Shown here in pieces: positions 2,364 to 31,299 of a stretch of DNA of 59,764 nucleotides (the first letter of the stretch is position 1; each line of letters opens with the position of its first letter). The notes under the pieces were generated by a model. That model had not been told where the DNA came from and made no database searches. It was given only the letters and a program-made list of their open reading frames with translations. The position numbers were made by a program, and so were the translations under genes. Source of the DNA: a virus; IMG/VR virus record IMGVR_UViG_3300048597_000258, positions 1-59,764 of that record, one strand, 5' to 3'.

Positions 2364-3845
2364 ATGTCTGACCCGACATTTGGCATTTCGATTGCGCGGA
2401 TCGACAACGAACCGCGTCCCGCCGTATGGAGCGATATGTCGGTCGTGGGCCTCATCGGCACCGCGCCTGCCGCCAATGCCGCCATCTTCCCGCTGAACAC
2501 TCCCGTCTTCATGTTCTCGGATGACGCCACGATGTTCGCGGCTCTCGGGGAAACCGGGACGCTCAAGGATGCTGTCGAGGGCCTGAACGATCAGTTGGGC
2601 GAATTTCAGGTGGCGGCGAAGGTCATCATCGTTCGCGTGACGGAAGGCGTGGACGATGATGCCACTATCACAAACATCGTTGGCAACTCGGCGAGCAAGA
2701 CGGGCGTCCACGCCTTTGTCGAGTCGGGTCCGGCGCTCGGCATAATCCCGCGACTCATCGCGGCTCCGGGCTACACGAAGCAGCACAAGACGGGCGTCAC
2801 CGCGCTCAACATCGCCAATGCTGGCAGCGGCTACACGAACGGCACCGCGCTCGCGCTCACCGCGACGGGCGGCGGCGGCACCGGGTTCGCTGGCACCGCG
2901 AAAGTTGTCGGTGGAGCCATCACCGAAGTGGTCATCACCAACCCCGGCAGCGGCTACACCTCCGCGCCGACGATCGTGCTGACCGCGCTCGGCGCTGGCA
3001 CCGGAGGCTCGGTCACCGCCACTGTCGGCGCGCTGGCGAACCCGGTCTGCGCGGAGCTTCCGTCCGTGCTGAACAAGCTCCTTGCCGTGGCCGTGGTGGA
3101 CGGCCCCGCCTCGACGCTCGCCGCCTACACGGCCTGGCGGGAGACGATGCAGAGCGAGCGCCTGATCCCGGTAGAGACTGCGGTGAAGGTGGGCGTGAGC
3201 GGCACGGTGCAGCCCGCGTCGCCGCGCATTCTCGGCATTGCCGTTCGCCGGGACCACCAGTACCAGGGGCGGCCCTTTCACTCCTGGGCCAACCAGCCCG
3301 TGCAGGGCATTGTCGGTCCTTCGCGCAACATCAACTTCTCGCTCACCGACGGGGCGACCGAGGGACAGGCGATCCTGTCGCAGAACGGCGGCGTGATCAT
3401 CCGTGGCGAAATGGGCGTCGAGACCGCCATAGCCTCGGGCGGCTTCGTCTTCGTTGGTACCGACACCTGCTCGGAAGACCCGCTCTGGCAGTTCTACAAC
3501 GTGGTTCGCGGCAGGGACTACATCCACCTCATGTTCCTCCGGACGCTTCGCTTCTATCTCGGCCGGTTCAACATCACCGGGCAGACCATCGAGGCGATCC
3601 GCAACACCATGGCGTTTGCGATGCGCGATCTCAAGGCGGATGGCGACATTCTCGGCTACCGGATCGCGTTCACGCGCGACCAGAACAGCCCGGAGCAGCT
3701 TCGCCTCGGCAAGTTCACCGTGAACTTCGCCGCCGAAGAACCGCCCGTCCTCCGCTATCTCGGCATCCAGTCTGCACGCTATCGTCCCGCGCTCGATGCG
3801 CTTCTCGACGATCTGCTGTCGCAGCTTGATGCGGTGACGGGCTAA
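2364..3845 (+). CDS. FI: Contractile tail sheath protein (P2 FI-like)
   Basis: The protein of 493 residues has the phage tail sheath pattern: an N-terminal segment running into V-G-L-I-G-T-A-P, and a C-terminal half with IRGEMGVETA, F-V-G-T-D-T, then a conserved C-terminal domain (R-G-R-D-Y-I-H-L to the end). A strong AAGGAG precedes the ATG. Residues about 145-225 form a Gly/Thr-rich insert with two G-S-G-Y-T repeats that P2 FI lacks; this looks like a surface-exposed domain. Sheath subunits contract to drive the tube through the envelope. The tube gene follows after an intervening homing endonuclease. Confidence 0.9.
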   Translation: MSDPTFGISIARIDNEPRPAVWSDMSVVGLIGTAPAANAAIFPLNTPVFMFSDDATMFAALGETGTLKDAVEGLNDQLGEFQVAAKVIIVRVTEGVDDDATITNIVGNSASKTGVHAFVESGPALGIIPRLIAAPGYTKQHKTGVTALNIANAGSGYTNGTALALTATGGGGTGFAGTAKVVGGAITEVVITNPGSGYTSAPTIVLTALGAGTGGSVTATVGALANPVCAELPSVLNKLLAVAVVDGPASTLAAYTAWRETMQSERLIPVETAVKVGVSGTVQPASPRILGIAVRRDHQYQGRPFHSWANQPVQGIVGPSRNINFSLTDGATEGQAILSQNGGVIIRGEMGVETAIASGGFVFVGTDTCSEDPLWQFYNVVRGRDYIHLMFLRTLRFYLGRFNITGQTIEAIRNTMAFAMRDLKADGDILGYRIAFTRDQNSPEQLRLGKFTVNFAAEEPPVLRYLGIQSARYRPALDALLDDLLSQLDAVTG

Positions 3846-3861
3846 CATCGAGGGCGTCGAA

Positions 3862-4590
3862 ATGGATAAAGCGTATGTCTACGCAGTCCGGGTCGATGGC
3901 ATTGTTCGCTACATTGGCAAAGGTACCGGACGAAGGCTCAACGCGCACATGAAGATTGTCCGCAGCATGGCTAGACGCCGTGCCGCGGGCGAAAGCGTGA
4001 TTGCCGTGAGCATGTTCTACGACAAGCTGTTTCGCGCCTATGTCGCGGGCAGCACCATTGATCACGAGATACTTTGCGACGGACTCTCCAATGCGGACGC
4101 CTATCGCACGGAAATCGAGGTCAAGAAGGGTTTTGAGGCGGCACAACTATGGAATGCTGGCAAGCCGTGGGACCGCGAGGACTATAGGGCGCGCCAGCGC
4201 ACCCGATGGGCCGATCCCGATGTGAAGGAGTACCATCGTCAAAAGGTAGTAGACGCACAGCGCCACCCGCAGCGCGTCGAAAGGAATAGCGCAAGGCTCA
4301 AGTCGGCCTGGGCCGATCCAGAGAAACGTGCGGCGCTGCATGTTGGTATAAAGAAATTTCGAGCAAGCGTCTTTGACAAGACGGTTCTTGGAAGTCTTTT
4401 GGCCTTTGTTCGCAACAACCCCGGCTTGAGCTTTACTGAAATCCGGAATGGATTTCAGGACCACAAGAAAGGTTCCGTCGCAAACTCTTTGAGGCGACTG
4501 CGTGATCGCGGTCTTGTGACCAAGGACGAAGGCAAGCACGGCGTTTACTATGCCTCAAACATCATCGAACTGAAAAGGATAGGCACATGA
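3862..4590 (+). CDS. GIY-YIG family homing endonuclease (free-standing)
   Basis: The 242-residue product opens with a GIY-YIG-like nuclease core: V-Y-A-V-R, then R-Y-I-G-K-G-T-G-R-R-L-N-A-H. The middle (about 115-165) has two W-A-D-P elements spaced like nuclease-associated DNA-binding (NUMOD-like) repeats. The C-terminus (about 170-235) looks like a winged helix: S-F-T-E-I, S-V-A-N-S-L-R-R-L-R-D-R-G-L-V. It lies between the sheath and tube genes, which are adjacent in P2. The coding DNA is less GC-rich than its neighbours, most clearly at 4330-4580. Its stop overlaps the tube start (ATGA). A role in spreading itself by cutting phages that lack it is inferred. Confidence 0.8.
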   Translation: MDKAYVYAVRVDGIVRYIGKGTGRRLNAHMKIVRSMARRRAAGESVIAVSMFYDKLFRAYVAGSTIDHEILCDGLSNADAYRTEIEVKKGFEAAQLWNAGKPWDREDYRARQRTRWADPDVKEYHRQKVVDAQRHPQRVERNSARLKSAWADPEKRAALHVGIKKFRASVFDKTVLGSLLAFVRNNPGLSFTEIRNGFQDHKKGSVANSLRRLRDRGLVTKDEGKHGVYYASNIIELKRIGT

Positions 4591-5416: not shown

Positions 5417-5544
5417 CATCGATGGTCGCGGACGTCGCGCACATGCTGCACACGCCCGTGACCGAACTTCTCGAAATGGATCTGCGCGACTTCATGGAAT
5501 GGCACCATGAAGCCGCGCGAATCGCAAAGGTTCGGGGCTTCTGA
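5153..5544 (+). CDS. E': Tail assembly chaperone E-E' fusion made by -1 frameshift
   Basis: After 80 zero-frame codons, a -1 slip on T TTT TTG (5386-5392) continues from 5392 for 50 more residues and stops at 5542-5544, whose last base is the first base of the tape-measure ATG. The extension contains M-V-A-D-V-A-H-M-L-H and L-L-E-M-D-L-R-D-F-M-E-W-H-H-E-A-A, which fits the P2 GpE/E' family (short, with a conserved E-M-x-L-x-x-L-x-x-W-x-x-x-A core). The total is about 130 residues. The extension has no good start of its own, which supports expression only by frameshift. The shift rate cannot be read from the sequence. Confidence 0.8.
5386..5392 (+). promoter_or_regulatory. Slippery heptamer TTTTTTG for -1 frameshifting
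   Basis: In the E frame the heptamer is split T|TTT|TTG, a canonical X-XXY-YYZ slip site identical to the one used between P2 genes E and E'. Both reading frames downstream give family-consistent ends. Confidence 0.8.
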
Positions 5545-7907
5545 TGGCTGAACAGGTTTCGTCCCTCATCGTTCGCCTGATCGATCAGGTCACAGGCCCC
5601 GCGCGGTCTGTCGCTACCGCGCTCTCCCGCATAGGCAAGTCGGTACAGGGTGCACGCGGAAGCGTCACCTTCGCTGACCGCCTCGACGCTGCGATGGCGA
5701 GGAACACGCGGCGGATCGATACCTATCGTGGGCAGATGGTGGACGCCATCGCGACCGTGTATGCGCTTGGAAGGGCAATCGGTGCTCCCGTCAATGCCTC
5801 CCGGAAGTTCGAGGCCGCCTTTGCTGACGTGAAGAAGGTGGTCGAGTTCCCGACGGAAGGGCCCTACTCCGCATCGGCGTTCCGCAAATCGCTCATCGAT
5901 CTGTCGCGTCGCGTGCCGCTGAGCGTCGAAGAACTGACGCAGATCGCGGCGGCCGGCGGACAGGCCGGCGTCGCTTTGGACGAGCTTGCAGGCTTCACGG
6001 AGAACGTAGCGCAAGTCGCGACCGCCTTCGAAATCAGCACGGAGGAGAGCGGCAAGGCTCTCGCCAATCTCAAGGCCGCGCTCAAGCTATCGAACCCGGA
6101 AGTGATGCTGCTCGCCGACCACATGAACGTGCTGGCGAACAACATGGCGACCAGCGAGCGGCAAGTCCTTGACGTGGTGAACCGCGTCGGCGCGCTCGGT
6201 GAAGTGGTCGGTGTGAAGGCGAAGGACGTCGCCGCCCTCGGCAGCGCAATGACCAGCGCTGGCGCCGATGCAGAAAGCGCCGGCACCGCCATCCGAAACC
6301 TGTTCCTCAATCTGGCGCAGGGGTCAGGAATGACGAAGGAGCAGGCCGGTGCGATGAAGCGCCTCGGCCTCGATGCAAAGAGCTTCCCGAAGCGGATGCA
6401 GGCCGAAGGCATGGTCGCGGTGGTCGATGTGCTTGAGCGCGTCGCGAAGCTTCCAAAGGATCAGCAGGCTTCGACCCTCACCGATCTCTTCGACAAGCGC
6501 GCTGTTGATGCCATTGGCCCGCTGCTGAACAACCTCGATCTGCTGCGGCAGGCGCTTGGCCTGGTGGCCGATGACACGGCGAACGCCGGCGCATCGCAAC
6601 GCGAGTTCGAGAAGCGAATCGACAACTTCGATGCCAAAATGAAGATGTTCGGCAACACGATGAATGCCATGAACATCGCGCTTGGCGATGCTCTGATTCC
6701 CGCCCTCACGACCATCCTTGAAAAGCTGACGCCGATCATCACGGCAATCGGTTCCTGGGCGGAGAAGAACCCGCAGCTTGCGGCAAGCATCGTCGGGGTC
6801 ACCGCCGGACTTCTCGCGCTGAACGCCGCCCTGATCGCGTTCAAGTACGTCGGCGCTCTTGGCTTCGGTGGCCTCCTGTCGATGACGAAGGGCGTCACGA
6901 CATTCGCGACCGGAGTTCACAAGGCGGCGGCGGGACAGATCGCGTTGAGCAAGGCGCTCGCGGGCATGAGCGGCGCGAACATGACCACCTTCACGACGAT
7001 GGGAGCGGGGCTGCGCGGCATGGCGCAAGCTGTTCCCGGCCTGTCCGGTCTGGCGACGGCGATGACTTCCATCGGCGCTGCGCTCGCGACGATCTCCGCG
7101 CCAGTGTGGCTCGGCATCGCTGCGGCCGTTGCGCTCGTCGCCGCGGCGGCATACTCGCTGTGGTATTATTGGGACCGCATTTCGTCGTTCGTCGGCGGCT
7201 TCGCAAGCACGCTGATGACGGAGCTTCAGCCGGCATTCGCGGCACTTGAGCCTGTGATGGAACCCATCGCGGGCCTAGCGCGCGCCATCGGAAGCGGTTA
7301 CGAGTGGGCCTCGCAGAAGATCTCCGACTTCATGGGCTGGCTTTCTTCCGTCTTCGAACAGGAGACGCTCACCGACGGACAGAAGGAAGCCTATCGGAAG
7401 TCCGGTTCCGATCTCGCGGAAGCAATGATCACTGCCATCAAGACAGCGTTCAATGAATTGCTCGCGTGGTTCTCCGAATTGCCGTCCCGCATCGTCGCGG
7501 CCATCGGGAGCATCGATCTCTCGGGGATTCTTAAGTGGCCCTCGATGCCTTCGTGGCTCGGCGGTGGTGGCGGGGGCGGCCAGCCATCCGGCGTTAAGGC
7601 GGCGCCGGGAGACGCCGCCGCCATGAGTGACTCAATCGACGGCAGAGCGCGCGGAGGTCCCGTCACCCGCGGCAAGTCCTATCTGGTCGGTGAGCACCGT
7701 CCCGAAATCTTCACGCCGTCGCAGAACGGCTACATCGGCCAGGTCGGTAAGGGCGGCGGCGGAACGACGATTTCGCCGACTTTCAACATCTCCATTAGCG
7801 GCAATGCGGATGCGTCGACCGTCGAGAACATCAGGCGCGTGCTGCGTGACGAGGTCCGCCAGGCGTTCCGCGGGGTCTATGCCGATGCCGGATTGAGGTT
7901 CACCTGA
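5544..7907 (+). CDS. T: Tail tape measure protein (P2 T-like, TP901 core)
   Basis: A 787-residue protein coupled to the E' stop by TGATG. Residues about 90-300 match the TP901-type tape-measure core (A-F-A-D-V-K-K-V, then the L-T-Q-I-A-A-A-G-G-Q motif and a helical stretch). Two long hydrophobic segments lie at about 410-450 and 505-545 and could insert into the host membrane during DNA entry. A Gly-rich linker near 670-680 and a C-terminal alpha/beta tail (S-P-T-F-N-I-S-I) follow. At about 1.5 angstrom per residue, such a protein would set a tail of roughly 110-120 nm; that length is an estimate from family knowledge. Confidence 0.9.
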   Translation: MAEQVSSLIVRLIDQVTGPARSVATALSRIGKSVQGARGSVTFADRLDAAMARNTRRIDTYRGQMVDAIATVYALGRAIGAPVNASRKFEAAFADVKKVVEFPTEGPYSASAFRKSLIDLSRRVPLSVEELTQIAAAGGQAGVALDELAGFTENVAQVATAFEISTEESGKALANLKAALKLSNPEVMLLADHMNVLANNMATSERQVLDVVNRVGALGEVVGVKAKDVAALGSAMTSAGADAESAGTAIRNLFLNLAQGSGMTKEQAGAMKRLGLDAKSFPKRMQAEGMVAVVDVLERVAKLPKDQQASTLTDLFDKRAVDAIGPLLNNLDLLRQALGLVADDTANAGASQREFEKRIDNFDAKMKMFGNTMNAMNIALGDALIPALTTILEKLTPIITAIGSWAEKNPQLAASIVGVTAGLLALNAALIAFKYVGALGFGGLLSMTKGVTTFATGVHKAAAGQIALSKALAGMSGANMTTFTTMGAGLRGMAQAVPGLSGLATAMTSIGAALATISAPVWLGIAAAVALVAAAAYSLWYYWDRISSFVGGFASTLMTELQPAFAALEPVMEPIAGLARAIGSGYEWASQKISDFMGWLSSVFEQETLTDGQKEAYRKSGSDLAEAMITAIKTAFNELLAWFSELPSRIVAAIGSIDLSGILKWPSMPSWLGGGGGGGQPSGVKAAPGDAAAMSDSIDGRARGGPVTRGKSYLVGEHRPEIFTPSQNGYIGQVGKGGGGTTISPTFNISISGNADASTVENIRRVLRDEVRQAFRGVYADAGLRFT

Positions 7908-19019: not shown

Positions 19020-20621
19020 TCATGCCACCAGCCGAAGGATCGGGATGGCCAGTTCGGCGTCCATAGACCGCTGCGGGCTCCCGCAACGCACTATAGACCA
19101 TGACTCGGGGCCCCTTGCGAAAGCAAGAAGGGCCCCGAGGGTTGAATCGGCCTCGATAAGTATTTGATTTCCTTGTCTCCGAGCGCCGACCCTCGAAATG
19201 AGGCTCCGCACAAGCTCACGCGCGCGGACCCCTTCGGTGCTTGCTCTGCCGAGCAACTTCTCGACTTCACCAAGCTGTCGTCTGTAACGTGCGGGTGCAT
19301 CGGTCGGCGCCGGGACCACATTCACTTCCGCCGGCACCTCGATTCTTTCCCGCTCTGCCTCGAGGCCCCTGATGCGCGACATGACAGCCGCGCTGCTCTT
19401 GCCCTCCTCGATCGCCGCCATCAGGTTGGCGATCTTGCGGTCAATCTCCCCCCTCCGCCGCTGGACGTTCTCGGCCTCACGCGCCCGCTCCGCCATCCGG
19501 CGCTCCACGCTTTCCCGGAGGTGCCGGGTGTATTCCTCGACGAGGACCTCGTCGTCCATGGCCGTCCGGAGCGCCTCGAGGATCCAGCCTTCCAGCCTGC
19601 CCATGTGCACGCCGCGATTGTTCCCGCAGGACCCCGCGTTCATCTGCGCCGTGCACCGGAAGTAGCCGTTGGCGAGCGCCATGGGGCTGCCGCACTCCTC
19701 GCAGCGCACCAGGCCCGACAGAAGCGTCTTGGGGCGGCGTAGCTGGTGCGGGGGATAGTTCCTTGCCGCGTCCACCCGGCGGGCCTGTACGGCCTCCCAC
19801 AGGGCCGTGTCGACGATCTGCAGCCCCGGCACATCCTGGCTGATCCAGACCTCCCTGGGGTTTGGCCGCGCGATGCGCCTTCCCGTCTCCGGGTCCTTGA
19901 TGAAACGCTGACGGTTGAAGACGGGCCTCCCGACATAGATCGGGTTTACCAGAAGGCCGTTGAGGCGGCTGACCGTGCCGACGAGCGTCGACACCCGCCA
20001 CTCCTTGCCACGCGGCGCCTGCACGCCTTCCCGGTTCAGCGCGGCGCATATCGCCCGCGGGGCCACGCCGGCGGCATAGTCCCCATAAATCCTCCTGATC
20101 ACCTCGGCCTCGCCTTCGTCTATGACGCGGAGGCCCCGCTTCTCCCCGGCGCCGACCCGGTAGCCGTAGCAGTTCCCGCCGGGGATCCTGCCATCCCGTG
20201 CGACCGCGAGGTTGCCGCGCCTGGTCTTGTCGGAGAGTTGCTTGAGGAACATCTCGCCCATCAGGCCCTTCAGGCCAGTGTGAAGCTGGGTGATCCGGCC
20301 ATCCGCGATCGTCCAGAGTTCGACGCTGTCCCTCTCGGTGAGCGAGTAGAGCCGCGCCGAGGCCTCGAGGTTGCGGTTGTAGCGGTCGAGGTCTTCGGCC
20401 ATCACCGCGTCGAAGGTGCCGAGCTTCATGGCGGTGAGCATGGCCAGATACTGCGGCCGCTGCGCCTCATGGGCGCCGGAGACGGACTCGTCGGCGTAGC
20501 GCTTGACGATCACCCCTCCCAGGGCGGCGATCCGCGCCTCGCACTCCCTGATCTGGTCAGCGCACGATTTGGGGTTTTGCCGGTCGCTGCTGTGGCGCGC
20601 GTAGATTGCCCATCTGAGCAT
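19020..20621 (-). CDS. int: Large serine recombinase (phage integrase)
   Basis: 533 residues from the ATG at 20621, which has GGAG six bases upstream; an upstream TTG at 20636 is not needed. Resolvase domain: Y-A-R-H-S-S-D-R-Q with catalytic Ser11, then D-L-D-R-Y-N-R-N. A recombinase domain follows (Y-G-Y-R-V, L-N-R-E-G-V). The zinc ribbon has C-E-E-C and two further Cys, then a coiled coil of about 60 residues. It is the last gene of the leftward early operon and would integrate and, with a directionality factor, excise the phage. No second integrase is present. The last codons overlap a strong hairpin. Confidence 0.92.
   Translation of the reverse strand: MLRWAIYARHSSDRQNPKSCADQIRECEARIAALGGVIVKRYADESVSGAHEAQRPQYLAMLTAMKLGTFDAVMAEDLDRYNRNLEASARLYSLTERDSVELWTIADGRITQLHTGLKGLMGEMFLKQLSDKTRRGNLAVARDGRIPGGNCYGYRVGAGEKRGLRVIDEGEAEVIRRIYGDYAAGVAPRAICAALNREGVQAPRGKEWRVSTLVGTVSRLNGLLVNPIYVGRPVFNRQRFIKDPETGRRIARPNPREVWISQDVPGLQIVDTALWEAVQARRVDAARNYPPHQLRRPKTLLSGLVRCEECGSPMALANGYFRCTAQMNAGSCGNNRGVHMGRLEGWILEALRTAMDDEVLVEEYTRHLRESVERRMAERAREAENVQRRRGEIDRKIANLMAAIEEGKSSAAVMSRIRGLEAERERIEVPAEVNVVPAPTDAPARYRRQLGEVEKLLGRASTEGVRARELVRSLISRVGARRQGNQILIEADSTLGALLAFARGPESWSIVRCGSPQRSMDAELAIPILRLVA
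19104..19139. other. Strong GAAA-capped hairpin in the integrase 3' end
   Basis: CTCGGGGCCC (19104-19113) pairs with GGGCCCCGAG (19130-19139), and inside it CTTGC pairs with GCAAG around a GAAA loop, with two unpaired A. There is no T-tract on either strand. It lies where the rightward restriction gene and the leftward integrase gene converge, so it could protect or terminate transcripts or be linked to recombination. Confidence 0.55.
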
Positions 20622-20754
20622 CAAGATCTCCAACAATTCGTTCCGCCTCTGCCTCGGCCATCAGGCGCGCAAGGGCCAGCAAGGCCGAGCGGGCCGGGGA
20701 GGGTAGTCCTGAAAGCCTCGGAATGGCAACTCGCGGGACAGGCGGGCGGGACAT
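20557..20754 (-). CDS. Small hypothetical protein overlapping the integrase start (65 aa)
   Basis: The ATG at 20754 is four bases downstream of the preceding stop, and the frame overlaps the integrase start by 65 bases. The product is helical with an Arg/Pro-rich N-terminus and a central A-L-L-A-L-A-R-L-M-A-E-A-E-A-E-R-I. No motif was recognised. Position directly before the integrase makes a directionality factor conceivable, but if the frame is not real this stretch could instead hold attP. Confidence 0.45.
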   Translation of the reverse strand: MSRPPVPRVAIPRLSGLPSPARSALLALARLMAEAEAERIVGDLDAQMGNLRAPQQRPAKPQIVR

Positions 20755-29349: not shown

Positions 29350-29378
29350 GCATTAAAGTCATGCTTTAGGCATGTCAA
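29350..29378 (-). promoter_or_regulatory. Leftward early promoter PL
   Basis: On the minus strand, a perfect TTGACA (29378-29373) and TAATGC (29355-29350) are separated by 17 bases. The first early gene starts about 18 bases after the expected transcript start. Two repressor-type operators overlap the -35 and the spacer. Confidence 0.75.
29354..29368. promoter_or_regulatory. Operator OL-a (TAAAG-TCATG-CTTTA)
   Basis: A 15-bp inverted repeat with perfect five-base arms, placed between the -35 and -10 of the leftward promoter. The same arms recur at the rightward promoter. Confidence 0.75.
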
Positions 29379-29449: not shown

Positions 29450-29479
29450 TTGACAGGCGGGAATTCCTCAGTTTGTAAT
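29450..29479 (+). promoter_or_regulatory. Promoter of the moron pair
   Basis: TTGACA at 29450-29455 and TGTAAT at 29474-29479, 18-bp spacing, about 30 bases before the ATG at 29509. It carries no copy of the phage TAAAG operator, so it should stay on in a lysogen. Confidence 0.7.
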
Positions 29480-29483
29480 TCCC
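29459..29483. promoter_or_regulatory. Inverted repeat GGGAATT-N11-AATTCCC over the moron promoter
   Basis: Two perfect seven-base arms (29459-29465 and 29477-29483) overlap the spacer and the -10 of the moron promoter, a typical repressor site. A second repeat, CTCAGT (29467-29472) with ACTGAG (29487-29492), is interleaved. The binding protein is unknown. Confidence 0.55.
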
Positions 29484-29508
29484 TTTACTGAGCGGGAGAT
29501 CCGAAAAC

Positions 29509-29862
29509 ATGCAGAGGGCGGGTGGTATTGTTGCTTTGATCGCTGGAATTTTTGGAGTTCTGGCTGCAGGTATGACGCTGTTCATCGGTGGTGTAGGCGG
29601 CGCCTTGGAGGCGGAGTCGGCCGGTACGGTCGTCATGCTGGGGTGGGGCGGGGTTGCGTTCTCGTTCCTCACAATTGTACTGGCTGCCGTCGCTATGGGG
29701 GCGAACAGCCGTTGGCCCGGAGTTCTGTTAATCCTTTGCGCAATTGCCGGGGCCATTCTGGGTGGCACGCTCGTCGCGGTGTTCATGGCGCTCGCCCTGA
29801 TCGGAGGTATCTTGGCAATGCTAGGCAGACGAGCGCCTTCAGATAGAGCGGTCAAGCAATGA
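29509..29862 (+). CDS. Four-TM membrane protein of the moron pair (117 aa)
   Basis: Four hydrophobic segments at about 5-30, 40-64, 69-85 and 88-105 with short loops; the general layout resembles DUF4064-like small membrane proteins. GGGAG precedes the start. Base composition is clearly less GC-rich than the flanks, consistent with separate acquisition. It is transcribed against the repressor gene and against the leftward operon, from its own promoter, and is coupled to a secreted-protein gene by ATGA. Candidate lysogenic conversion or exclusion gene. Confidence 0.65.
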   Translation: MQRAGGIVALIAGIFGVLAAGMTLFIGGVGGALEAESAGTVVMLGWGGVAFSFLTIVLAAVAMGANSRWPGVLLILCAIAGAILGGTLVAVFMALALIGGILAMLGRRAPSDRAVKQ

Positions 29863-30194
29863 AAACAGATCGCCAGCTTTCCTTCGCCGTTGCGATGATG
29901 CTTGGTTTCAGCGTTCAATCTGCCATGGCCGATTCCTTGAAAGCAATGAAGACTGCAACTAACCTGGGCAGCGTCCTCGCCGCCGAGGATGCTTGCGGCC
30001 TTACATATGATCAAGAAGCAATTTCAGCTTTTATTGAGAAGCACGTCGATGCCGACGATATGGATTTTCCTTCGACGCTGAAGCTGATGACGGAAGGCTC
30101 CAAATTCCAACTGACAGAGATGAGCAAGTCGGAACTCACTGCCTACTGCACCCAAGTCAAGAGGCTTGCGAAAACCTACGGCTTCACTCGGTAG
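29859..30194 (+). CDS. Small secreted protein of the moron pair (111 aa)
   Basis: ATGA overlap with the membrane protein gene. The N-terminus (M-K-T-D-R-Q-L-S-F-A-V-A-M-M-L-G) is a Sec signal with a likely cut after S-A-M-A. The mature part has two Cys (D-A-C-G-L and A-Y-C-T-Q) and the phrase Y-D-Q-E-A-I-S-A-F-I-E-K. Similar small periplasmic proteins occur in Hyphomicrobiales; no function is known to me. Confidence 0.65.
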   Translation: MKTDRQLSFAVAMMLGFSVQSAMADSLKAMKTATNLGSVLAAEDACGLTYDQEAISAFIEKHVDADDMDFPSTLKLMTEGSKFQLTEMSKSELTAYCTQVKRLAKTYGFTR

Positions 30195-30241: not shown

Positions 30242-31027
30242 TCACATCCGAGACACTCGGCCCGACACCCGTCCAATGATCCGAATATCGTCCAGCCTCA
30301 GGGTATAAGGCTCGTGGCGGGGGTTGTCGGAGATGATCCGGACCTCCGCCGGCTCCGACCTGCGGATCAGTTGCAGGCGCTTTACCATCGGGCCGTCTCC
30401 CTCCTCGATCACGTAGATGCCGTCGGGCGTCGGCCGGGAGTGGCTGGTGTCGACGATGACCCGGTCGCCGGTCTCAAGGGTTGGGGACATGCTGTCGCCC
30501 ACCACCTCGAGCACCATGATGCCACCGGGCTGCACGTGCAGTTCGTGCCGCAGGAAAGCGCTCGGAAAAACCCAGTCCGAAATCACCCGGTGTCCGACGT
30601 AGGTCTCTCCCCGTTGCAGCGTGACGATCTCGTGGTCGCCAACCTGGCCCGATCCGGCGCCCGCCCTCGCATCAACTTCAGGCACCGCTCCCGGTACGCC
30701 GCTCTTGTAGTTCTCAAGGCTGCTCTTGCCGTTGTTCTCGCGCTGCTCGCGACCAGGCAGGCCGGCGGCTATTTCCTCAGAGGAGACGTGCTCGAGTTCA
30801 CCGGTCACGAGCCATGAAAGCGGACAGTCAAGAATTGCAGCAAGCTTCGTGAGGTTTGGCAGGGTTGGAGTATCTTCGCCTCGTTCCCACTGAGAGACCG
30901 CTTGTGGAGAAACACCTATGCGATCAGCGACCTCGCGCTGATTGTATTCCGTGAATTCCTTTCTCGCGAACTGCAGTCGCTTAGCCAAAGTCAGGTTATC
31001 CGGAAGCTTTTGCATTCTCAGCACCAT
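30242..31027 (-). CDS. Phage repressor, HTH plus S24 (LexA/CI-like) autoprotease
   Basis: 261 residues. An XRE helix-turn-helix is at about 15-75 (R-E-V-A-D-R-I-G-V-S-P-Q-A-V-S-Q-W-E-R-G). After a flexible linker comes an S24 peptidase domain: likely cleavage at Ala122-Gly123, catalytic Ser179 in G-D-S-M-S-P-T-L and Lys216 in V-K-R-L-Q. This is the lysogeny repressor, inactivated by RecA-stimulated self-cleavage after DNA damage. An alternative ATG at 31015 exists; the first ATG (31027) overlaps an operator-like repeat. Confidence 0.9.
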   Translation of the reverse strand: MVLRMQKLPDNLTLAKRLQFARKEFTEYNQREVADRIGVSPQAVSQWERGEDTPTLPNLTKLAAILDCPLSWLVTGELEHVSSEEIAAGLPGREQRENNGKSSLENYKSGVPGAVPEVDARAGAGSGQVGDHEIVTLQRGETYVGHRVISDWVFPSAFLRHELHVQPGGIMVLEVVGDSMSPTLETGDRVIVDTSHSRPTPDGIYVIEEGDGPMVKRLQLIRRSEPAEVRIISDNPRHEPYTLRLDDIRIIGRVSGRVSRM

Positions 31028-31061: not shown

Positions 31062-31090
31062 TTGCGTCTTTTTTAAAGTCGTGCTTTATT
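31062..31090 (+). promoter_or_regulatory. Rightward early promoter PR
   Basis: TTGCGT (31062-31067), 17-bp spacer, TTTATT (31085-31090). The predicted transcript start is about 31097, only one or two bases before the Cro-like ATG at 31099, implying a leaderless or nearly leaderless mRNA. Confidence 0.6.
31074..31088. promoter_or_regulatory. Operator OR-b (TAAAG-TCGTG-CTTTA) in PR
   Basis: A perfect five-base-arm copy of the operator that differs from OL-a at one base. It covers the spacer and -10 of the rightward promoter. Confidence 0.75.
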
Positions 31091-31098
31091 TCCGCGTC

Positions 31099-31299
31099 AT
31101 GGATAAAGCTCTTGAGAACGCAATCCGGACGGCAGGCTCTTCCAAGGCCCTTGCTGAAAAGCTTGGGGTTACCGCTCAAGCCATCTCCCAGTGGACACGG
31201 GTGCCAGCCCTTCGCGTCCTCGACGTGGAGCGTGCGACAGGCGTCTCCCGACACGATCTCCGTCCCGATTTGTACCCCCGAGAAGGGGAAGCAGCATGA
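31099..31299 (+). CDS. cro: Cro-like HTH protein (66 aa)
   Basis: First gene of the rightward operon, divergent from the repressor. A helix-turn-helix is visible: S-K-A-L-A-E-K-L-G-V-T-A-Q-A-I-S-Q-W, followed by V-L-D-V-E-R-A-T-G-V. The size and YdaS/Cro-like pattern fit a lytic-side repressor. The stop overlaps the next start (ATGA). Confidence 0.85.
   Translation: MDKALENAIRTAGSSKALAEKLGVTAQAISQWTRVPALRVLDVERATGVSRHDLRPDLYPREGEAA

What the first reader, a model, noticed from the sequence alone, without database searches (positions are those of the whole stretch)
29450..30194. Two-gene moron with its own promoter and own inverted repeat inside the immunity region
A strong TTGACA-N18-TGTAAT promoter without the phage operator, overlapped by GGGAATT-N11-AATTCCC, drives a four-TM protein and a secreted protein coupled by ATGA. 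The DNA is less GC-rich than the flanks and transcribes against both early operons. This is the profile of a lysogen-expressed exclusion or host-fitness module, possibly under host control.
Basis: partly seen in the sequence, partly recalled or inferred. Interest (0 to 1): 0.72.

Follow-up and report, generated by a model that had tools for sequence, protein, structure and literature searches.

The report
Phage-borne envelope gene pair beside repressor
A dormant virus of bacteria carries, next to its sleep-switch gene, two small genes for a membrane protein and an exported protein; relatives of the pair turn up in other viruses beside either the same switch or the tail-ruler gene, which suggests that they guard the infected cell's envelope against rival viruses.

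Summary
A TTGACA-N18-TGTAAT promoter at 29450 ties with the leftward early promoter as the best sigma-70-like site in the whole window. It precedes a four-helix membrane protein (G1) and a signal-peptide protein (G2), overlapping by ATGA. No CI operator lies there. Two sub-claims fail: the inverted repeat is at chance level and absent from relatives, and the pair opposes only the left operon and cI, since the right operon runs the same way.

Relatives give the identity. The same G1-G2 pair, with the same 4-bp overlap, lies 17 bp behind a CI-like repressor in L052 (a cI-rexAB layout). In L001-L003 it lies antisense between tail-chaperone and tape-measure genes, the socket that holds the superinfection-exclusion gene gp15 in HK97. 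Half of 32 G2 clusters abut a tape-measure gene, all antisense. In two phages with 71-75% identical CI, the same cI-PL slot holds other small exported proteins. Both families are rare in host genomes.

Best reading: a mobile, lysogen-expressed envelope moron, most likely excluding superinfecting phages at DNA entry. Function is inferred, not shown. G1 (DUF4064-like) also pairs with other exported proteins, suggesting a shared membrane base with interchangeable partners.

The parts
29450..29479 (+). Promoter of the pair: TTGACA (29450-29455), 18 bp, TGTAAT (29474-29479)
   Evidence: One of the two top sigma-70-like sites of the window, 12.3 bits; no CI operator
29459..29483 (.). Inverted repeat GGGAATT-N11-AATTCCC overlapping the -10; probably chance
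   Evidence: 0.18 such repeats expected per 60 bp; in none of the other loci
29509..29862 (+). G1: 117-aa four-helix membrane protein, phrog_6780, related to DUF4064
29859..30194 (+). G2: 111-aa exported helical protein, phrog_27886, two invariant cysteines (C46, C97); ATGA overlap with G1
30242..31027 (-). CI-like repressor (HTH_3 + Peptidase_S24), convergent with the pair
29352..29378 (-). Leftward early promoter TTGACA-N15-TTTAAT, overlapped by the CI operator
29353..29368 (+). CI operator copy TTAAAGTCATGCTTTA (left)
31073..31088 (+). CI operator copy TTAAAGTCGTGCTTTA (right)
31081..31299 (+). Cro-like gene (YdaS/P22_Cro), first gene of the right operon; same direction as the pair
5544..7907 (+). 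The phage's own tape-measure gene; its upstream junction holds no moron here

Best explanation
The pair is a moron: a compact transcription unit inserted between the leftward early promoter and the 3' end of cI, expressed in the lysogen from its own promoter, which CI does not control. G1 is a four-helix inner-membrane protein and G2 a small helical protein exported to the periplasm, where its two conserved cysteines probably form a disulfide. I think G1 and G2 act together at the periplasmic face of the inner membrane and block DNA entry of superinfecting phages, most likely by interfering with the tape-measure protein or the injection channel it builds. Shown: gene structure, promoter match, lack of an operator, homologous pairs in other phages, the cI-operon and tape-measure-junction positions, rarity in hosts. 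Inferred: lysogen transcription, localisation, G1-G2 interaction, exclusion and its target.
For: Top-ranked promoter without operator. L052: CI-like repressor 3279-3983, then G1 at 4001 and G2 at 4354 on the same strand with the ATGA overlap kept and no promoter-like site in the last 120 bp. L033: G2 convergent with a CI-like repressor, overlapping its 3' end. L001-L003: the pair antisense between chaperone and tape measure. 16 of 32 G2 clusters abut the tape-measure gene, all antisense, on its 5' or its 3' side. HK97 gp15, annotated 'moron product', occupies the chaperone/tape-measure junction, and published work names gp15 and TP-J34 Ltp as exclusion proteins that block injection and whose effect is escaped through tape-measure (or tail tube and tape-measure) changes (PMC10883804; PMC3952083). 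The cI-PL slot in two phages with related CI holds other small proteins with export signals (L084 127 aa, convergent; L085 67 aa, 3 bp after cI). G1 occurs with other exported partners (L004, L008, L055) and in L058 is fused to a domain homologous to the L008 partner (E 3e-17).
Against: No expression or phenotype data. Half of the G2 clusters are not beside a tape measure; several are between GemA and a Mor-like gene in Mu-like phages. G2 also occurs without G1 in most phages. No PADLOC match, no PDB or viral fold match for G2. DUF4064 has a non-phage role in S. aureus AuxB.
Confidence: 0.5

Rival explanations
1. Lysogenic conversion for host fitness: G1-G2 alters envelope stress, wall or membrane physiology of the lysogen and has nothing to do with other phages.
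For: G1 is related to DUF4064; the DUF4064 protein AuxB of S. aureus is a four-TM protein that coordinates envelope processes through GpsB and PknB (PMC12505970). G1 and G2 homologs also occur on plasmids.
Against: The repeated tape-measure and repressor sockets and the rarity in hosts fit phage-phage competition better. The window protein itself matches DUF4064 only below the curated cut-off.
Confidence: 0.3
2. Lytic-phase or virion function: G2 takes part in tail assembly or infection, which is why it sits by the tape-measure gene.
For: Half of the G2 clusters lie at the tape measure.
Against: The gene is always antisense to the late operon there, is exported, and lies in the repressor region in the window, L052 and L033.
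Confidence: 0.07
3. Transcription from the pair's promoter mainly tunes cI by convergent transcription; the proteins are secondary.
For: The pair and cI are convergent with a 47-bp gap, and the terminator scan lists none between them.
Against: Both proteins are conserved across phages where they are not convergent with cI.
Confidence: 0.05
4. A host regulator controls the pair through the 25-bp inverted repeat.
For: The repeat overlaps the -10.
Against: Chance-level repeat, not conserved; 9 viral contigs match TTGACA-N18-TGTAATTCCC, no more than chance would be expected to give for 16 fixed bases in so large a collection.
Confidence: 0.05

Closest known systems
HK97 gp15 superinfection-exclusion moron (Cumby et al. 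2012, cited in PMC10883804)
   Same: Small phage-encoded envelope protein; its socket between tail chaperone and tape-measure gene is the one used by the G1-G2 pair in L001-L003 and by G2 in other phages.
   Different: gp15 is a 62-aa single protein matching YebO and phrog_5031, a different family from G1 and G2; it lies in the same direction as the late genes, G2 antisense.
Ltp lipoprotein of phage TP-J34 (PMC3952083)
   Same: Exported protein encoded in the lysogeny module and transcribed in the prophage state; blocks DNA injection, target the tape-measure protein.
   Different: Lipid-anchored in a Gram-positive host; G2 has no lipobox, and no sequence or fold match to a solved structure was found.
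lambda cI-rexA-rexB (own knowledge)
   Same: Two genes following the repressor and expressed in the lysogen; L052 has this layout with G1-G2.
   Different: No homology was tested here; RexA is cytoplasmic, G2 exported; in the window the pair is convergent with cI and has its own promoter.
AuxB / DUF4064 proteins (PMC12505970)
   Same: All 18 aligned G1 homologs touch the DUF4064 profile, best E 9.6e-18; four helices.
   Different: AuxB has a long C-terminal tail and acts with PknB and GpsB; the window G1 scores under the curated cut-off.
Glo of Vibrio phage K139 (named in PMC3952083, PMC4870250)
   Same: Described as a soluble periplasmic exclusion/immunity protein of a temperate phage.
   Different: Sequence not compared here; no membrane partner described in what I read.

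Membership tests
Moron (phage cargo gene with its own promoter, inserted between phage genes) | Own promoter outside the phage's repressor control | tested here: met
   (sequence match only; activity not measured)
Moron (phage cargo gene with its own promoter, inserted between phage genes) | Same cargo at different sites in different phages, or other content at the site in relatives | tested here: met
   Pair at cI in the window and L052, at the tape measure in L001-L003; slot holds other genes in L084 and L085
Moron (phage cargo gene with its own promoter, inserted between phage genes) | Own terminator (usual, not strictly required) | tested here: inconclusive
   None found after G2 by the simple scan; L002 shows a GC-rich hairpin followed by T's downstream of its G2
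Moron (phage cargo gene with its own promoter, inserted between phage genes) | Expressed from the prophage | not testable with these tools
   needs RNA from lysogens
Superinfection-exclusion protein acting at injection (gp15, Ltp, SieA type) | Envelope localisation | tested here: inconclusive
   Four hydrophobic helices in G1; G2 export inferred from the N-terminus of the family, its own signal segment is only weakly hydrophobic
Superinfection-exclusion protein acting at injection (gp15, Ltp, SieA type) | Blocks DNA entry of superinfecting phage; escape through tape-measure or injection genes | not testable with these tools
   needs phage challenge; linkage to the tape measure is only suggestive
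DUF4064 (PF13273) | Score above the curated cut-off | tested here: not met
   15.8 bits against 32.1; homologous relatives reach E 9.6e-18
Known anti-phage defence families (PADLOC) | Match to a PADLOC model | tested here: not met
   No match for G1 or G2 up to E 1
HK97 gp15 family (phrog_5031) | Sequence homology | tested here: not met
   G1 hits phrog_6780, G2 phrog_27886, gp15 phrog_5031

The most novel reading that the evidence does not exclude
G1 is a general four-helix membrane base that temperate phages combine with interchangeable exported partners (G2, a lipoprotein in L004, anchored or secreted proteins in L008 and L055, a fusion in L058), making a modular exclusion system that shuttles between a repressor-side socket and a tape-measure-side socket across phages of unrelated build.
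Probability: 0.3. Interest if true: 0.7.

Novelty: new variant of a known kind. Interest (0 to 1): 0.5.

Why it matters
Exclusion at DNA entry is known from a few enteric and Gram-positive phages. A widespread uncharacterised family at the matching sockets in phages of Alphaproteobacteria would extend it to another large group, and the pairing of one membrane protein with different exported proteins offers a direct test of whether the exported partner sets which phages are excluded. The cI-PL slot that holds different small exported proteins in related phages gives a simple rule for finding more.

Tried and rejected
(a) Host regulator through the inverted repeat: repeat at chance level, not conserved; a collection scan for the promoter plus right arm gave 9 matches, no more than chance would give. 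(b) Known fold or defence family: no PDB sequence match, no significant PDB or viral fold match for G2 and no significant PDB fold match for G1, no PADLOC match, no NCBIfam match. (c) Host core gene: a phrog_27886 search of 385 genomes of the class of the centre genome found only that centre genome, and a G1 search of 296 genomes of an order found one. (d) Close relatives of the whole region: blastn against annotated phages found only 94-bp matches in Synechococcus phages; a left-operon protein gave none. (e) Own promoters of relatives: only 10 of 37 score p<=0.1, so the strong promoter is special to the window rather than a family trait. (f) The 189-aa antisense ORF over G1 is unlikely to be a gene: the opposite frame is the conserved one. 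(g) The tree of G2 is poorly resolved, so the 8 socket changes counted on it are a rough figure.

Full report
WHAT IS THERE. The window is a phage record of 59,764 bases. A CI-like repressor (HTH_3 plus Peptidase_S24) runs leftward at 30242-31027 and a Cro-like gene starts the right operon at 31081. The CI operator is readable as TTAAAGTCRTGCTTTA, present exactly twice, at 29353 over the leftward promoter and at 31073 over the rightward start.

IS IT MORE THAN CHANCE. A sigma-70 weight matrix over both strands of the window gives only two sites at or above 10.5 bits: the leftward early promoter and this one, tied at 12.3. The matrix frequencies are from general knowledge of E. coli promoters, so the ranking is relative. 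The strict consensus scan does not list the site because its -10 has G at position 2. The inverted repeat is not remarkable: 175 exact 7-bp-arm repeats with spacer 3-20 occur in the window, 0.18 per 60 bp, and no other locus fetched by then has it.

THE PROTEINS. G1 is 117 aa with four hydrophobic segments and a confident four-helix model (pLDDT 88). It belongs to phrog_6780; all 18 aligned homologs touch DUF4064, the best at 9.6e-18, the window protein below the curated cut-off. DUF4064 belongs to the tetraspanin clan, and the S. aureus member AuxB was shown to have four TM helices with its C-terminus inside and to act on envelope processes (PMC12505970). G2 is 111 aa, phrog_27886, with an export signal judged from the family, two invariant cysteines in 33 aligned sequences and a confident helical model (pLDDT 89) that has no significant match among solved or viral structures.

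RELATIVES AND SOCKETS. A profile of G2 found 39 viral loci and 6 genomic ones, G1 23 viral loci. Four kinds of position appear. First, beside cI: in the window, in L033 (G2 convergent with a CI-like repressor) and in L052, where G1 starts 17 bp after a CI-like repressor on the same strand and G2 follows with the ATGA overlap. L052 has no promoter-like site in the 120 bp before G1, as expected if it is read from the cI promoter. Second, between tail chaperone and tape measure, antisense: L001-L003 with the pair and several phages with G2 alone, including Paracoccus phage Pthi1. Third, at the 3' end of the tape measure in P2-like tails, G2 alone. Fourth, between GemA and a Mor-like gene of Mu-like phages. 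Sixteen of 32 clusters (80% identity) abut a tape measure. These clusters are not independent, but two different sides of the gene and several tail types are involved; the tree is too weak to count moves exactly.

The window's own tape measure (5544-7907) is homologous to that of L002 (E 6e-118), yet its chaperone/tape-measure junction is empty: the same cargo sits in the tail socket in one phage and in the immunity socket in the other.

THE SLOT IN RELATED PHAGES. Two phages with 75% and 71% identical CI over the C-terminal 208 residues show no match to G1 or G2. In L084 the slot holds a 127-aa protein with a signal peptide, convergent with cI; in L085 a 67-aa protein with an N-terminal membrane segment starts 3 bp after cI. 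Three related immunity regions thus carry three different small exported or membrane proteins in the same place. Neither the L084 nor the L085 protein has a confident family match.

PARTNER EXCHANGE. G1 is followed by a lipoprotein-like protein in L004, an anchored protein on a Rhizobium plasmid (L008) and a different secreted protein in L055. In L058 G1 is fused to a domain homologous to the L008 partner (29% identity over 119 aa, E 3e-17). This supports, without proving, that G1 works together with whatever exported protein it is paired with.

INTERPRETATION. Position in the repressor operon or repressor slot points to expression in the lysogen. [quoted passage not shown] PMC3952083). G1 and G2 are not homologous to gp15 at the family level, so this is likeness of place and build, not membership. 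The main rival is an envelope-fitness function, encouraged by AuxB. No experiment bears on the choice, and confidence in exclusion is about one half.

VERDICT. The feature is real and is a moron in the accepted sense, apart from lacking a recognised terminator. Expression and function are untested. What goes beyond the ordinary is the recurrence of one pair in two sockets with known exclusion associations and the exchange of exported partners.

Noticed in passing
L084:4685-5068(-), L085:4631-4834(+): The slot between cI and the leftward promoter holds different small exported or membrane proteins in phages with related CI; looks like a cargo slot.
   Followed up: partly
L058:3938-5482(+): G1 fused to a further membrane segment, an exported domain like the L008 partner, and TPR repeats.
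   Followed up: partly
L017, L026, L027, L042, L043, L048, L049, L051: G2 homologs antisense beside GemA and a small Mor-like regulator gene of Mu-like phages.
   Followed up: partly
L075, L076: G2 homologs in Amaricoccus MAG contigs beside a class-III aminotransferase gene, apparently outside a phage.
   Followed up: no
L056, L059: G1 homologs in Firmicutes-like phages next to repressor/ImmA or integrase genes, in L056 after a lipoprotein gene.
   Followed up: partly
L011:3998-4315: A G2 homolog on a Rhizobium plasmid is annotated 'signal recognition particle', which its sequence does not support.
   Followed up: no
L010 (CP079755.1): A Klebsiella plasmid record carries DUF4064 and DUF4352 genes that look like those of Bacillus prophage loci; possibly foreign sequence in the assembly.
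   Followed up: no
window 19020-20636(-): N-terminus reads like a serine recombinase, a candidate integrase of this phage.
   Followed up: no
L083:1468-1920(-): A lone G1 homolog in a bacterial genome (order of the Paracoccus centre genome) between chromosomal genes such as a transaldolase-like gene.
   Followed up: no
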